From positions 1 to 40,895 of IMG/VR virus record IMGVR_UViG_3300009786_000025: a stretch of DNA of 40,895 bases; one strand, given 5' to 3'. Every line of letters starts with the position of its first letter. Position 1 is the first letter of the stretch. The notes beneath the pieces were generated by a model. It was not told where the DNA came from. It saw nothing but the letters and a program-made list of their open reading frames with translations, and did not search any database. The position numbers and the translations under genes were made by a program. Of this stretch, positions 9,077 through 13,546 are shown one piece after another. The stretch is from a virus.

Positions 9077-9102
9077 GGGGGGAGGCGTCTTTGTCTCCCC
9101 CC
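9077..9102 (+). terminator. Strong hairpin after the ssDNA-binding protein gene
   Basis: GGGGGGAG pairs with CTCCCCCC around a 10-base loop. It lies 18 bases after the stop codon and 21 bases before the HNH gene. No U tract follows, so it may act as an attenuator or RNA-processing/stability element rather than a full terminator. Confidence 0.5.
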
Positions 9103-9123
9103 TTACCTTTCAGGAGATTTAAT

Positions 9124-9678
9124 ATGTCTAAGCGGTTCCGACACGGCATGTGTAAAACCACTGTCTATAAGGCGTGGCTCAACATGAAGGCACGTTGTAA
9201 TAATTCAAACAACCCGCAGTACCACAGTTATGGTGGGAGAGGGGTATCAGTCTGCAAAAGATGGCATGATTTTAAGAACTTCTTTGAGGACATGGGTGCC
9301 CCACCAAAGGGAACATCTATAGACCGGATAAATAACAACAAAAACTACACCCCCAAAAACTGTAGGTGGGCAGATGTAAGCACACAGAACAACAACCGAC
9401 GAGATAACAAGTGGATAACTTGGAGGGGTAAGACCCAAACACTGGCCCAGTGGTGCAGACAGACGGGGGTCAACTACCAACTAGCGTCGCAGCGTTTATT
9501 GGACGGCTGGCTTATAGAGAAGGCGCTGTCTCCTAAGTTATACCTCGCAAAGGAACTGACCTTTGAAGGAAGAACACAAAGTATGTCGGCTTGGTCTAGA
9601 GAATTAGGCTTAAACAGTGGGGCAGTATCCATCCGGTTACAAAGAGGCTGGTCAATAGAGAGAGCCTTAACAAAATGA
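9124..9678 (+). CDS. HNH homing endonuclease with C-terminal NUMOD-like repeats
   Basis: 184 aa from the ATG at 9124 (AGGAG upstream; the longer frame from 9091 is not supported). The first part has KAWLNMKARCNNSNNPQYH, YGGRGVSVCKRWHDFKNF and IDRINNNKNYTPKNCRWAD, the signature of a common phage HNH nuclease family. Two repeats follow, WRGKTQTLAQWCRQTGVN and FEGRTQSMSAWSRELGLN, each ending like GWxIExAL. They resemble the modular DNA-recognition repeats of intron-encoded nucleases. A free-standing mobile gene inserted between the ssDNA-binding protein and the polymerase. Its codon usage looks more AT-rich than its neighbours. Confidence 0.88.
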   Translation: MSKRFRHGMCKTTVYKAWLNMKARCNNSNNPQYHSYGGRGVSVCKRWHDFKNFFEDMGAPPKGTSIDRINNNKNYTPKNCRWADVSTQNNNRRDNKWITWRGKTQTLAQWCRQTGVNYQLASQRLLDGWLIEKALSPKLYLAKELTFEGRTQSMSAWSRELGLNSGAVSIRLQRGWSIERALTK

Positions 9679-9866
9679 CTGACACGATATTATTCAGCTT
9701 TGTAAACGTCGGCACCGGTTTCGTTATTAGCTGGCTGCTGGCCTATTACGTCATCCCTATTGTGTTCAAGGTCGAGCGGCAAGTGCGTTCCGCCACCAAG
9801 ATCACGTTGATATACACGGTGGCCGCGATTGCGCGGAACATCATTGTGTTTGGGATGTGGGTATGA
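9675..9866 (+). CDS. Small two-helix membrane protein (DUF7220-like)
   Basis: 63 aa. Two hydrophobic helices: FVISWLLAYYVIPIVF (about 16-31) and ITLIYTVAAIARNIIVFGMWV (43-63), joined by a short basic loop. This matches the small phage membrane family annotated DUF7220 (inference from pattern). ATGA overlap with the HNH gene and with the polymerase start shows coupling to the polymerase. Confidence 0.7.
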   Translation: MTDTILFSFVNVGTGFVISWLLAYYVIPIVFKVERQVRSATKITLIYTVAAIARNIIVFGMWV

Positions 9867-12688
9867 CTGACATATTAAGAGCCGACTTCGAGACACGGTC
9901 TATCATTGATCTGCCGAAGACCGGCGTGAACATCTACGCCGATCACCCGTACACTGATGCGTGGTGCATGGCGTATGCGTTTAACGATGAGCCGGTGAAA
10001 ATATGGATCAAGGGTGAGCCGCTACCAGCGCGGATTGAAGCGCACATCATTGACGGTGGTTTGTTTGGCGCGTGGAACGCGCACTTTGAACTGGCCATCT
10101 GGAACAAGATCATGGTGGTGCGCTATGGCTGGCCCCCGCTGGATGTGCGGCAGTGCCGCTGTTCAATGATGATGTCGGCGGCGATGAGTTTACCGCTGGG
10201 GCTGGATAAATCTACCCAAGCCCTCAACCTGAAGATCACCAAAGACATGGCCGGGCATCGGCTGATGATGCAGATGTCGAGACCGCGCAGGATCAACGAA
10301 GACGGCACCCCTGTTTGGTGGGATGACGATGGCCGCAAGAACCGCCTTTATGAATATTGCAAGACAGATGTCGAGGCGGAACGCGCCGCAGCATCAAAAC
10401 TGCGTCCGCTTAGAGCCTCTGAGGCCGATCTCTACGTACTGGACTACGAAATAAATCAGCGCGGTGTCCCTGTGGACCTGTTAAATACCCGCAAATTGAT
10501 CAAATGGTGCGGAAACCAGCGCAATGACCTCGACAAGCAAATGCGTAAAGTCACCAAGTCCAAGGTCAATTCGTGTTCCGATCTGGTCGGCCTCAAGGCA
10601 TTCGCCGGGGTGTCCAGCGTGGCCAAGGCGTCCCTAGAAAAAGCCATAGCGTCCAACAAGGGCCGCATCCAAGAGGCCCTGATGTTGAGGCGCGACTACG
10701 CCAAGACTTCCACCAAGAAGCTAGAGGCGTTTGATCGCGGCACCATGGACGATGGGTTCATGCGCGGCATCCTCCAGTTCTACGGCGCAGAAAGCACAGG
10801 CCGCTGGTCTGGCCGACGTGTCCAGCCCCAGAACTTTCCACGGCCAGAGTGTGATCAAGATGAGATCGAACGCCGCATCAATGAGTTCGATTTCAAGTCA
10901 CTGGCCGAGGTCTCTGACTGCTTAAGGGGCATGATCGCCGCACCAGAGGGTGAGGAATTGGTTTGCAGCGATTTTAATTCCGTTGAGGCGCGTGGGCTGG
11001 CGTGGATGGCTGGTCAGCAGAACGTCCTGAAGGCGTTCATTGATGGGAAGGATTTATACAAGGTCGCCGCCATGGATATTTACGGCGCGGATTACGACGA
11101 CGTGACCAAGGACCAGCGTCAGGTCGGCAAGGTCGCCTGTATAGCGGAAGGGGAGTTGGTCCTCACAGATCACGGGCTTTGCCCTATTGAGAAAGTCCGT
11201 AGTTGCGCTAGGGTATGGGACGGCGTAGAGTGGGTGAAACATGACGGGCCAATATTCAAAGGAGTGCGTGATGTCATCACCTACCAAAATCTCACCGCGA
11301 CAAAGGACCATGCCGTCTGGACAGCCAGTGGACGGCAAGCCTTATTTGACGAATGCGCCCGGAACGAAATCCCCCTTGCAGAGACCGGAAATGGTGGGCT
11401 TGCAATTCGGTTGGGTGAAAGTGATATCCCCATCAGTGATGAAGAAAAACGGGTCCCGGCATCTACGTGTCCGGTGTGTGGGTTGTTGCGTGGAGAAATG
11501 GATAAATTTATACAACCTGTTGAAGAACAAAACCAACGGGTGCCAGAGTTGCTCCCAGCCGAGGCGCATCCCCAAATGGTTGGATCGCCGTCTAACGGCG
11601 GCGAAGAGGCGATGCACCAACCAAGGGGACCCTTCGTGGAAGAATTACGGGGCGCGGGGGATCAAGTTCAGGTTCTCGTCGGTGTTGGAAGCGGGGCTGT
11701 GGATACAGGAGAACCTTGGCCTTCACCGGGATTGGGAGATAGACAGGATCAACAACAACAGGCACTACGAGCCGGGGAACCTGCGTTGGGCGACACGCGG
11801 ACAGCAAATGCGGAACACCCGAAGATCAACATTACCGAGCAATTGGGAGTTCAAACAGAGCGAGTGGCCTTACGCGAGAAACACCGTTCAGCGGAAGTTG
11901 AGAAGCGGGTTGACCCGCAAGCAAATACTCGCCCAAGCAGAACTGGCAGTGGTGGAAAAGCGCAAAAAGTGGCGGGTCATCCAAGAACGTCTCGCGTCTA
12001 TGACCTCTTAAACTGCGGCCCCCGGCACCGGTTTACTGTGTCTGGGGTGCTTGTCCATAATTGCTTGGCACTGGGCTATCAGGGGGCCAAGGGCGCGTTC
12101 AACGCCATGGCCGTTGGATATGGGGTGCAGTTGAAGGACGATCAGGTCGAGAAGATCGTGGAGAACTGGCGCAAGGCCAACACCCACATAGTCAATTGGT
12201 GGTACGACTTGGAGCGAGGGGCCACCAAGGCCATCAACAATCCGGGTACAAAGGTGAGTGTTGACCGGACAATACTCACGCATAAGCGTGGGCATCTGTG
12301 GCTCAAGTTGCCATCAGGTCGGCTGTTGTGTTTCCCCAGATGCAAGATGGCACCGGTCACCAAACCGTGGGGCGGCAGACAAATGAGTATCACCTACATG
12401 GGCGAAAACTCATTCACCCATAAAGTCGAGAGGCTGTCCACATACGGCGGCAAGATCGCGGAGAACATTGTCCAAGCATTGTGCAGAGATTTACTCGCTG
12501 AAGCGTTAATAAGGGTTGAGGCGGCTGGGTATCGCGTGGTGATGCATATCCATGATGAGATCGTCGCGTATCTGCATGACGGAGGATCGCTGGAAGAGTT
12601 CGAGAACATCATGGCTGAGGTGCCTGAGTGGGCTGAAGGTATGCCAATAGCCGCAGAGGGCTGGACCGGACGCCGATATCGAAAATAA
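9863..12688 (+). CDS. Family A DNA polymerase interrupted by an intein
   Basis: 941-residue precursor from the ATG at 9863 (ATGA overlap; a GTG two codons upstream is the alternative). N-terminal 3'-5' exonuclease: DFET (8-11), NAHFE (72-76), YCKTDVEAE (165-173). Polymerase motif A CSDFNSVEARG (catalytic Asp370), motif B RQVGKVA/CLALGYQG, motif C HIHDE with Asp898. An intein spans residues 426-733 between Ala425 and Cys734, inside motif B, where an unspliced enzyme could not work. Splicing would give a polymerase of about 633 residues, normal for phage Pol I. This is the replicative enzyme, next to the ssDNA-binding protein and primase/helicase genes. Confidence 0.93.
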   Translation: MTDILRADFETRSIIDLPKTGVNIYADHPYTDAWCMAYAFNDEPVKIWIKGEPLPARIEAHIIDGGLFGAWNAHFELAIWNKIMVVRYGWPPLDVRQCRCSMMMSAAMSLPLGLDKSTQALNLKITKDMAGHRLMMQMSRPRRINEDGTPVWWDDDGRKNRLYEYCKTDVEAERAAASKLRPLRASEADLYVLDYEINQRGVPVDLLNTRKLIKWCGNQRNDLDKQMRKVTKSKVNSCSDLVGLKAFAGVSSVAKASLEKAIASNKGRIQEALMLRRDYAKTSTKKLEAFDRGTMDDGFMRGILQFYGAESTGRWSGRRVQPQNFPRPECDQDEIERRINEFDFKSLAEVSDCLRGMIAAPEGEELVCSDFNSVEARGLAWMAGQQNVLKAFIDGKDLYKVAAMDIYGADYDDVTKDQRQVGKVACIAEGELVLTDHGLCPIEKVRSCARVWDGVEWVKHDGPIFKGVRDVITYQNLTATKDHAVWTASGRQALFDECARNEIPLAETGNGGLAIRLGESDIPISDEEKRVPASTCPVCGLLRGEMDKFIQPVEEQNQRVPELLPAEAHPQMVGSPSNGGEEAMHQPRGPFVEELRGAGDQVQVLVGVGSGAVDTGEPWPSPGLGDRQDQQQQALRAGEPALGDTRTANAEHPKINITEQLGVQTERVALREKHRSAEVEKRVDPQANTRPSRTGSGGKAQKVAGHPRTSRVYDLLNCGPRHRFTVSGVLVHNCLALGYQGAKGAFNAMAVGYGVQLKDDQVEKIVENWRKANTHIVNWWYDLERGATKAINNPGTKVSVDRTILTHKRGHLWLKLPSGRLLCFPRCKMAPVTKPWGGRQMSITYMGENSFTHKVERLSTYGGKIAENIVQALCRDLLAEALIRVEAAGYRVVMHIHDEIVAYLHDGGSLEEFENIMAEVPEWAEGMPIAAEGWTGRRYRK
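11138..12061 (+). mobile_element. Intein in polymerase motif B, with an out-of-frame HNH gene nested inside
   Basis: 308 residues, Cys1 (11138) to Asn308 (12059-12061), followed by extein Cys+1. Block A: CIAEGELVLTDHGLCPIEKV. Block B: LTATKDHAVW (Thr55, His58). Blocks F and G: RVYDLLN, RHRFTVSGVLVHN with penultimate His307. These are all the residues expected for protein splicing. Between blocks B and F the frame stays open for about 200 codons but reads as low-complexity, Glu/Gln/Gly/Pro-rich sequence with no recognisable domain. That same DNA encodes an HNH endonuclease in the +1 frame. The insertion site is a catalytic motif, typical for inteins. Confidence 0.92.
11271..12011 (+). CDS. HNH homing endonuclease overlapping the intein in the +1 frame
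   Basis: 246 aa if it starts at the ATG at 11271, which has AAAGGAG 6 bases upstream. The conserved part begins at MVGLQFGWVKVIS (ATG 11391), so the first 40 residues may be only an alternate reading of intein block-B DNA. The protein shows a CxxC...CxxC zinc-finger-like region (RVRCVGCCVEK, GCQSCSQ), RRLTAAKRRCTNQGDPSWKN, YGARGIKF and the HNH signature EIDRINNNRHYEPGNLRWAT. It is the same family as the HNH gene at 9124. Its TAA (12009-12011) lies inside intein block F. It presumably drives homing of the intein, but is translated separately. Confidence 0.88.
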   Translation: MSSPTKISPRQRTMPSGQPVDGKPYLTNAPGTKSPLQRPEMVGLQFGWVKVISPSVMKKNGSRHLRVRCVGCCVEKWINLYNLLKNKTNGCQSCSQPRRIPKWLDRRLTAAKRRCTNQGDPSWKNYGARGIKFRFSSVLEAGLWIQENLGLHRDWEIDRINNNRHYEPGNLRWATRGQQMRNTRRSTLPSNWEFKQSEWPYARNTVQRKLRSGLTRKQILAQAELAVVEKRKKWRVIQERLASMTS

Positions 12689-12689
12689 T

Positions 12690-12727
12690 TTGCTATAACT
12701 GGCACTAACCATCTATAGTAAATAGAT
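12690..12727 (+). promoter_or_regulatory. Possible promoter and small hairpin before the NUMOD4-HNH gene
   Basis: TTGCTA (12690-12695), 18 bases, TATAGT (12714-12719): a plausible sigma70-type promoter in a 64-base AT-rich gap. ATCTAT/ATAGAT (12711-12716 and 12722-12727) form a 6-bp inverted repeat over the -10. It would give the following HNH gene its own transcript. Confidence 0.35.
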
Positions 12728-12752
12728 ATCAAAATATACGGAGTATTTAAGT

Positions 12753-13298
12753 ATGAAATGGCTAGATATATCTGGGTGGGAGGGCGCGTACCAAGTCAGT
12801 GATGGAGGGCGGGTTCGCTCTCTTGACCGTATGATAGTGGCAGGACAACCCCACGGTGGGCGGGGTGAACGTAGCTATAAAGGAAGGATGCTGACCGCTT
12901 ACGTTTCTGGCTCAGGATATCCTATTGTTTCATTTACCGGCCCCGGTAAGAAAAGAGAGTATCACAACGTACATCGGTTAGTTCTTGAAGCCTTCGTTGG
13001 CCCATGCCCCCCAACGATGGAGTGTTGCCATTATGATGGCAACCGCACCAACAATAAGCTGACTAACCTCCGGTGGGATACCCGCTCAAACAACGCGCTG
13101 GATGCAAACAGACATGGGACCCGAAACGCAGCAAAAGGTGAAGACGCCCACTGGGCAAAACTCACTGAGAAGAACGTCAAGTATATACGCGCCAACGTAG
13201 ATAAGTTGGGCCAGCGGGAAATGGGCCGAATGTTTGGCGTCACACACGGCACGATAGGGTTGGTCTTAAAAGGCCAAACATGGAAGCACGTTAAATGA
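12753..13298 (+). CDS. NUMOD4-HNH homing endonuclease with C-terminal HTH
   Basis: 181 aa. NUMOD4 at residues 3-26 (WLDISGWEGAYQVSDGGRVR). HNH_3 core from NVHRLVLEAFVG through CHYDGNRTNNKLTNLRW to TRSNNALDA. C-terminal helix-turn-helix region LTEKNVKYIRANVDKLGQRE then FGVTHGTIGLVLKGQTW, a DNA-binding repeat typical of these nucleases. Upstream GGAG. A free-standing mobile gene just after the polymerase, of a different HNH subfamily from the other two. Composition is slightly more AT-rich than neighbouring core genes. Confidence 0.9.
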   Translation: MKWLDISGWEGAYQVSDGGRVRSLDRMIVAGQPHGGRGERSYKGRMLTAYVSGSGYPIVSFTGPGKKREYHNVHRLVLEAFVGPCPPTMECCHYDGNRTNNKLTNLRWDTRSNNALDANRHGTRNAAKGEDAHWAKLTEKNVKYIRANVDKLGQREMGRMFGVTHGTIGLVLKGQTWKHVK

Positions 13299-13546
13299 CC
13301 CCAGAAAAACTAGCAGAGAAACACCTATTCAAAACCCGCGCCTACAAAGATAACCACGGTGGCGATATAGGGGCGTGTGCCAAAGCCATCGTTGAAGGCA
13401 AGGCAGCATCCTTCGAGGCTGGCATCGGGGTAGGCCGCATTGAGGAGCGTGATGACATAATTACCTATATCGAAAGCACAGACCTTGCTGACCTTTGGAA
13501 AGAAATGTTTGTCAAAGCTATCAGGGCGCGGGGGGAGGATAAATAA
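13295..13546 (+). CDS. Small hypothetical protein
   Basis: 83 aa, MTPEKLAEKHLFKTRAYKD with an Ala/Gly middle and a helical, charged C terminus. ATGA overlap with the HNH gene; the next ATG begins directly after its stop. No recognised family. Confidence 0.6.
   Translation: MTPEKLAEKHLFKTRAYKDNHGGDIGACAKAIVEGKAASFEAGIGVGRIEERDDIITYIESTDLADLWKEMFVKAIRARGEDK

What the first reader, a model, noticed from the sequence alone, without database searches (positions are those of the whole stretch)
11138..12061. Polymerase intein whose homing endonuclease is encoded in an overlapping, out-of-frame ORF
Seen directly: in the polymerase frame, motif B is interrupted by an intein with blocks A, B, F and G, terminal HN and C+1. 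Between blocks B and F the intein frame reads as low-complexity sequence, while the +1 frame of the same DNA (11271-12011) encodes a full HNH nuclease. The nuclease stop (TAA at 12009) lies inside block F (RVYDLLN). The intein frame has no stop across about 206 codons of the nuclease gene. With equal bases the chance of that is roughly (61/64)^206, about 5 in 100,000 (back of envelope). Known inteins carry the nuclease in frame, lack it, or are split with the nuclease gene lying between the halves. One contiguous intein with an overprinted nuclease would be a new architecture.
Basis: partly seen in the sequence, partly recalled or inferred. Interest (0 to 1): 0.96.

Follow-up and report, generated by a model that had tools for sequence, protein, structure and literature searches.

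The report
Inteins with an overprinted HNH nuclease
In this phage a self-splicing protein insert (intein) in the DNA polymerase gene carries its mobility enzyme in the same DNA read in a different frame, and the same double-coding design turns up in more than 200 other distinct phage and prophage inteins.

Summary
Window 11138-12061 is a contiguous 308-aa intein in motif B of a family A phage DNA polymerase. Its ends form a Hint (protein-splicing) domain. Its middle, 11271-12011, encodes a 246-aa HNH-family nuclease in the +1 frame, with a Shine-Dalgarno (AAAGGAG) six bases before its ATG. A second assembly covers 11138-11841 without indels. Relatives from IMG/VR, GTDB prophages and named phages (Gardnerella, Streptococcus, APSE-1, Caulobacter) gave 242 distinct inteins at 90% DNA identity: nuclease in +1 in 177, +2 in 53, absent in 12, in frame in none. 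Across 51,789 nuclease codons the intein frame has 0 stops against 1,624 expected. Substitutions follow the intein frame at the ends and the nuclease frame in the middle. Streptococcus phages show empty sites and inteins more alike than their host genes, the mark of homing. Splicing, nuclease expression and cleavage are inferred, not shown. An out-of-frame HNH insertion without an intein is published (ShiLan domain, 2025). A 2025 preprint on 'non-canonical' actinobacteriophage inteins could not be read and may describe this design.

The parts
9857..12688 (+). Family A DNA polymerase gene including the intein (N-extein 9857-11137, C-extein 12062-12685)
   Evidence: One ORF of 943 aa; Pfam DNA_pol_A 1.2e-15, PHROG DNA polymerase 1.8e-90
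11138..12061 (+). Intein, polymerase frame, 308 aa, C1 ... HN/C+1, inserted in motif B (QVGKVA | CLALGYQG)
   Evidence: intein-free homologues read through the site in one piece
11138..11392 (+). N-terminal Hint half (blocks A and B; invariant C1, T55, H58)
   Evidence: AlphaFold pLDDT about 96 for residues 1-80; invariant columns in 50 inteins; profile match to Mtu RecA intein E 5e-4
11978..12061 (+). C-terminal Hint half (block F RVYDLLN...HRFTVSG, block G LVHN)
   Evidence: AlphaFold pLDDT 92-95 for residues 281-308; conserved in relatives
11405..11977 (+). Intein-frame linker, predicted disordered, the by-product of the overprinted gene
   Evidence: AlphaFold pLDDT about 40-55, no secondary structure; evolves fast in this frame but never carries a stop
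11258..11264 (+). Shine-Dalgarno AAAGGAG, six bases before ATG 11271
   Evidence: Sequence; SD of 5 or more bases before the homologous ATG in 54 of 64 distinct relatives against 34.8 expected from codon recoding
11271..12011 (+). HNH-family endonuclease ORF, +1 frame relative to the intein, 246 aa plus TAA
   Evidence: PHROG HNH endonuclease 1.3e-23; AlphaFold mean pLDDT 84; synonymous substitutions dominate in this frame
11475..11552 (+). Cys4 zinc-ribbon-like motif of the nuclease (C69, C72, C91, C94)
   Evidence: C69 and C91 invariant, C72 and C94 at least 90% in 50 nucleases
11736..11816 (+). Nuclease core motif E-x-DR ... Y ... N ... N
   Evidence: E156, D158, R159, Y166, N170, N182 invariant in 50 nucleases; weak profile match to PacI, E 0.05

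Best explanation
This is a mobile intein in which one stretch of DNA serves two proteins. Ribosomes translating the polymerase read straight through 11138-12061. The two ends fold into a Hint domain that excises itself and joins the polymerase halves, and the middle is only a disordered linker. Other ribosomes start inside the same mRNA at the Shine-Dalgarno/ATG at 11258/11271 and make a separate 246-aa HNH-family nuclease from the +1 frame. The nuclease cuts intein-free polymerase alleles in co-infecting phages or prophages, and repair copies the whole intein in. Selection keeps the nuclease frame for homing and keeps the intein frame free of stops so the essential polymerase can be made. Shown here by sequence: both frames, the conserved Hint residues, selection on both frames, the family-wide conservation, and the homing pattern in relatives. 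Inferred: splicing, separate translation, cleavage and homing.
For: Intein frame: C1, block B T/H, block F, HN and C+1 conserved in relatives; AlphaFold gives two confident ends and a disordered middle, and Foldseek's top PDB match is the Npu DnaE intein, with nearly all leading matches Hint/intein entries. Nuclease frame: PHROG HNH families, confident fold, zinc and DR/Y/N motifs invariant or nearly so. Both frames under selection: 0 intein-frame stops against 1,624 expected in 228 distinct inteins, while the third frame has 3,156 against 3,043 expected. Window against L059: Hint-N differences per codon position .16/.11/.43, middle .48/.30/.28, Hint-C .11/.07/.39; six independent pairs agree, with nuclease-frame syn/nonsyn 252/60 in the middle. 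SD excess 54 against 34.8. Ascertainment control: searches with the nuclease alone gave 92 open and 3 broken intein frames. Mobility: Streptococcus phages with extein DNA 82.5% and 89.0% identical share inteins 94.6% and 99.6% identical, with an empty site in Javan181. Independence: the nuclease decays while the intein stays open in L008 and L009, and mini-inteins without it exist, L010 and L011. Group I intron excluded as far as Rfam can tell.
Against: No experiment shows splicing, the nuclease or homing. The nuclease lacks a convincing solved relative (Foldseek found none; PacI only E 0.05), so 'HNH' rests on PHROG families and motifs. The SD overlaps codons that the intein needs anyway, so its excess is moderate. 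No empty allele close to the window's own polymerase was found; homing is inferred from relatives. A few relatives have an intact nuclease but a broken intein frame (L413, L417, L230, L275).
Confidence: 0.86

Rival explanations
1. The nuclease is not started independently but made by programmed frameshifting, as an N-extein/Hint-N/HNH fusion.
For: The +1 frame is open a little upstream of the ATG in some relatives.
Against: In the window the +1 frame opens only at 11238, 33 bases before the ATG; the ATG sits at one of two fixed places (intein +133 or +145) in 64 distinct inteins, with an SD excess. The offset is +2 in 53 others, so no single frameshift direction would serve.
Confidence: 0.06
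2. A dead or non-splicing insertion like the ShiLan domain: the polymerase keeps the in-frame peptide and the HNH is the only functional part.
For: Published precedent for an out-of-frame HNH insertion without detectable Hint (PMC11855218).
Against: A complete Hint domain is conserved with catalytic residues; Hint ends evolve under intein-frame purifying selection; the insertion sits in motif B of an essential polymerase; Hint-only mini-inteins persist without the HNH (L010, L011).
Confidence: 0.04
3. RNA-level splicing (group I intron) that happens to be open in the host frame.
For: Group I introns in phage polymerases often carry HNH genes (general knowledge).
Against: No Rfam match in 9500-13500 even at E 1; intein blocks at exact C1/HN/C+1 borders; open frame in nearly all compared relatives.
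Confidence: 0.01
4. Sequencing or assembly artefact: compensating indels hide an ordinary in-frame HNH intein.
For: Metagenomic source.
Against: Second assembly without gaps; same layout in isolate phages and in complete genomes such as Peptoniphilus genitalis NZ_CP097885 (L139).
Confidence: 0.005

Closest known systems
Canonical large inteins with an in-frame homing endonuclease domain (LAGLIDADG, rarely HNH)
   Same: Hint splicing domain with a mobility nuclease encoded between blocks B and F
   Different: Here the nuclease is in another frame, has its own start and stop, and is predicted to be a separate protein; the intein-frame middle encodes no domain
ShiLan domain and Pacc40 gp60 insertion (Arsenault et al. 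2025, PMC11855218)
   Same: Out-of-frame HNH nuclease inside an open-frame insertion in a phage gene, with a disjunct distribution
   Different: The authors found no Hint domain or splicing motif there and propose the peptide is retained in the methylase; here a complete Hint domain is present, in polymerases and helicases
Gosselin, Arsenault and Gogarten 2025 preprint on actinobacteriophage inteins with 'non-canonical architecture' (doi 10.1101/2025.01.02.630785)
   Same: Cited by the ShiLan paper for overlapping reading frames in actinobacteriophages; may describe the same design
   Different: Could not be read here, so the overlap is unknown; the relatives found here lie largely outside actinobacteriophages
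Fractured genes: split inteins with a homing endonuclease gene between the halves (Dassa et al. 2009, known from memory and citations)
   Same: A separate nuclease ORF associated with Hint halves
   Different: The window intein is contiguous. Rare relatives with a broken intein frame and intact nuclease (L413, L417, L230, L275) may be that arrangement
APSE-1 P45 polymerase intein
   Same: Same layout: deposited P46 (L013 3431-3853) is part of the overlapping HNH ORF
   Different: Different insertion site (near motif C); I found no paper held here that names the overlap

Membership tests
Intein (class 1, Hint superfamily) | Cys1, block B T..H, block F, terminal HN and nucleophilic C+1 | tested here: met
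Intein (class 1, Hint superfamily) | Hint fold | tested here: met
   AlphaFold ends pLDDT above 90, Foldseek hits to Npu DnaE and other inteins, best E 7e-4
Intein (class 1, Hint superfamily) | Self-excision with extein ligation | not testable with these tools
   Needs expression
Canonical HEN-containing intein | Endonuclease domain translated in frame with the Hint domain | tested here: not met
   Nuclease in +1; no in-frame nuclease in any of 242 relatives
HNH endonuclease | Match to HNH families and conserved metal-site motif | tested here: met
   phrog_374 1.3e-23 and others; D158 R159 Y166 N170 invariant
HNH endonuclease | Fold match to a solved HNH enzyme | tested here: inconclusive
   Foldseek PDB none significant; PacI by profile E 0.05
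Homing element | Disjunct distribution, empty sites, element more alike than its host gene | tested here: met
   Shown for Streptococcus phage relatives, not for the window itself
ShiLan-type insertion | No Hint domain or splicing motif | tested here: not met
   Hint domain present
Fractured (split) intein with intervening nuclease gene | N and C halves in separate ORFs | tested here: not met
   One ORF 9857-12688
Group I intron | Conserved ribozyme core | tested here: not met
   No Rfam match at E 1

The most novel reading that the evidence does not exclude
A widespread, undescribed third kind of large intein: the homing nuclease gene is overprinted in +1 or +2 on the linker of a contiguous Hint domain, in phage polymerases, helicases and a resolvase. 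An essential host gene thereby forbids frameshifts in the selfish nuclease, and the nuclease can only decay by point mutation or in-frame deletion.
Probability: 0.5. Interest if true: 0.86.

Novelty: new variant of a known kind. Interest (0 to 1): 0.74.

Why it matters
Intein biology takes it that the homing nuclease is an in-frame domain; the Felix O1 genome paper used 'not in the same reading frame' to rule inteins out (PMC3185647). Here a large family breaks that rule, so nuclease-bearing inteins have been annotated as plain polymerase or nuclease-free inteins. It is also a natural, repeatedly conserved case of two genes sharing the same bases where one product is only a linker, which makes it a clean model for overlapping-gene evolution and for 'entangled' genetic designs. 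It shows how a selfish gene can be tied to an essential one: indels in the nuclease break the polymerase, while nonsense mutations in it do not (L008).

Tried and rejected
Assembly indels: rejected. Group I intron: no Rfam match. Full Pfam and NCBIfam scans of the intein and nuclease frames alone gave nothing. A test for codon choice favouring a more soluble intein linker gave only a slight effect (GRAVY z -0.36). L382 looked like a stop-recoded phage but has mixed TGA and TAG and is probably a pseudogene. HNH fold search in PDB gave no usable match. Literature: three sources that could bear on priority (Gosselin preprint, Gorbalenya 1998, Dassa 2009) are not held.

Full report
What is in the window. 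The window is a whole IMG/VR virus record. The polymerase ORF 9857-12688 runs without a stop through an insertion at 11138-12061. The insertion begins with Cys, ends His-Asn and is followed by Cys. It interrupts motif B of a family A polymerase (QVGKVA | CLALGYQG). The +1 frame of the same DNA holds an ORF open from 11238 to 12008. From ATG 11271, which has AAAGGAG six bases upstream, it encodes 246 aa matching HNH endonuclease families (phrog_374, 1.3e-23). Its TAA (12009-12011) lies inside block F. A separate assembly of nearly the same virus agrees at 99.97% with no gaps up to 11841, so compensating indels are not the explanation.

The two products. An alignment of 50 inteins gave an AlphaFold model with residues 1-80 at pLDDT about 96 and 281-308 at 92-95, joined by a middle at about 40-55 with no secondary structure. 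The model's best PDB match is the Npu DnaE intein, and nearly all the leading matches are Hint/intein entries. The nuclease frame folds with mean pLDDT 84. It has a Cys4 motif and an invariant DR...Y...N core, reminiscent of PacI (E 0.05), but no significant fold match in the PDB. So the intein identity is firm, and the nuclease identity rests on sequence families and motifs.

It is a family. tblastn found the same nuclease inside polymerases of Gardnerella phage vB_Gva_AB1 and several Streptococcus phages. Per-locus analysis showed it out of frame every time, also in APSE-1 (deposited P46 within P45), Shewanella, Caulobacter, EBPR and Pseudomonas phages, with +2 instead of +1 in some. Scans of IMG/VR and GTDB genomes and a profile pipeline gave 361 contiguous inteins in 242 clusters at 90% identity: nuclease +1 in 177, +2 in 53, none in 12, in frame in none. 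The exteins are family A polymerases at several sites, SNF2 and ResIII helicases, and a Holliday junction resolvase. Two metagenome contigs, which share identical intein lengths and scores, carry two such inteins in one polymerase gene (L090, L091).

Both frames are under selection. Holding the nuclease protein and its codon usage fixed, 228 distinct inteins (51,789 codons) should have 1,624 stops in the intein frame; they have none. The third frame has 3,156 against 3,043 expected. The window alone has p = 0.0011. That pipeline required an open intein frame, so the fair check is the set found with the nuclease alone: 92 open intein frames, 3 broken; one of the three (L440) contains an ambiguous base. 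Substitution patterns switch frame where expected. Between the window and L059, Hint-N differs at intein codon positions .16/.11/.43, the middle at .48/.30/.28 (position 1 is the wobble base of the nuclease), and Hint-C at .11/.07/.39. Six independent pairs of relatives agree. The nuclease's Shine-Dalgarno is in excess (54 of 64 against 34.8), although the intein's own codons supply part of it.

Mobility and life cycle. Javan113 and PhiSdyV1524 share inteins 99.6% identical while their polymerases are 89.0% identical in DNA. Javan113 and Javan255 share 94.6% against 82.5%. Javan181, 92.6% identical to Javan113 in protein, has an empty site. In PhiSdyV1524 a stop has broken the nuclease while the intein frame is intact. 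In Javan422 an in-frame deletion left a nuclease remnant, and the Ruminococcus phages have mini-inteins. This is the expected invasion, decay and loss cycle. Rare loci with an intact nuclease but a broken intein frame (L230, L275, L320, L413, L417) may be split inteins or dead copies.

What is inferred. Protein splicing, internal initiation, cleavage of empty alleles and homing of this particular element are inferences from established intein biology and from the relatives. No empty allele close to the window's own polymerase was found; the nearest intein-free relative found is about 42% identical.

Novelty. In the papers I could read, the nearest precedent is the ShiLan domain: an out-of-frame HNH in a phage methylase that its authors could not link to any splicing domain. 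That paper cites a preprint whose title speaks of non-canonical intein architecture and which is cited for overlapping frames; it is not held. I therefore file this as a new variant of a known kind, with about an even chance that the architecture is undescribed.

Noticed in passing
window 9091-9678 (+): A free-standing HNH endonuclease gene (phrog_3377 2.5e-61) directly upstream of the polymerase, related to the overprinted nuclease (37% over 85 aa).
   Followed up: partly
window 12753-13298 (+): A NUMOD4-HNH_3 homing endonuclease gene directly downstream of the polymerase, so three HNH genes cluster around or in one polymerase.
   Followed up: partly
L090 861-1802 and 2181-3086 (also L091): A polymerase gene with two inteins, each with its own out-of-frame nuclease.
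   Followed up: no
L230 2544-3470, L275 4001-5010, L320 136-1160, L413 2735-3716, L417 2742-3704: Intact nuclease ORF but several stops in the intein frame: candidate natural split inteins or dying copies.
   Followed up: partly
L382 971-3953: An APSE-like polymerase with mixed TGA and TAG stops and a broken nuclease, probably a pseudogene that still carries its intein.
   Followed up: yes
L013 3431-3853: APSE-1 P46, deposited as an overlapping gene of unknown function inside P45, is part of the overprinted nuclease.
   Followed up: yes
L015, L017, L018 and 53 clusters in all: The same layout exists in the other shifted frame (+2), which suggests separate origins of the overlap or separate invasions of mini-inteins.
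   Followed up: partly
L134 5001-5546 and 5922-6326: Two nuclease-free Hint inteins close together in one polymerase gene.
   Followed up: no
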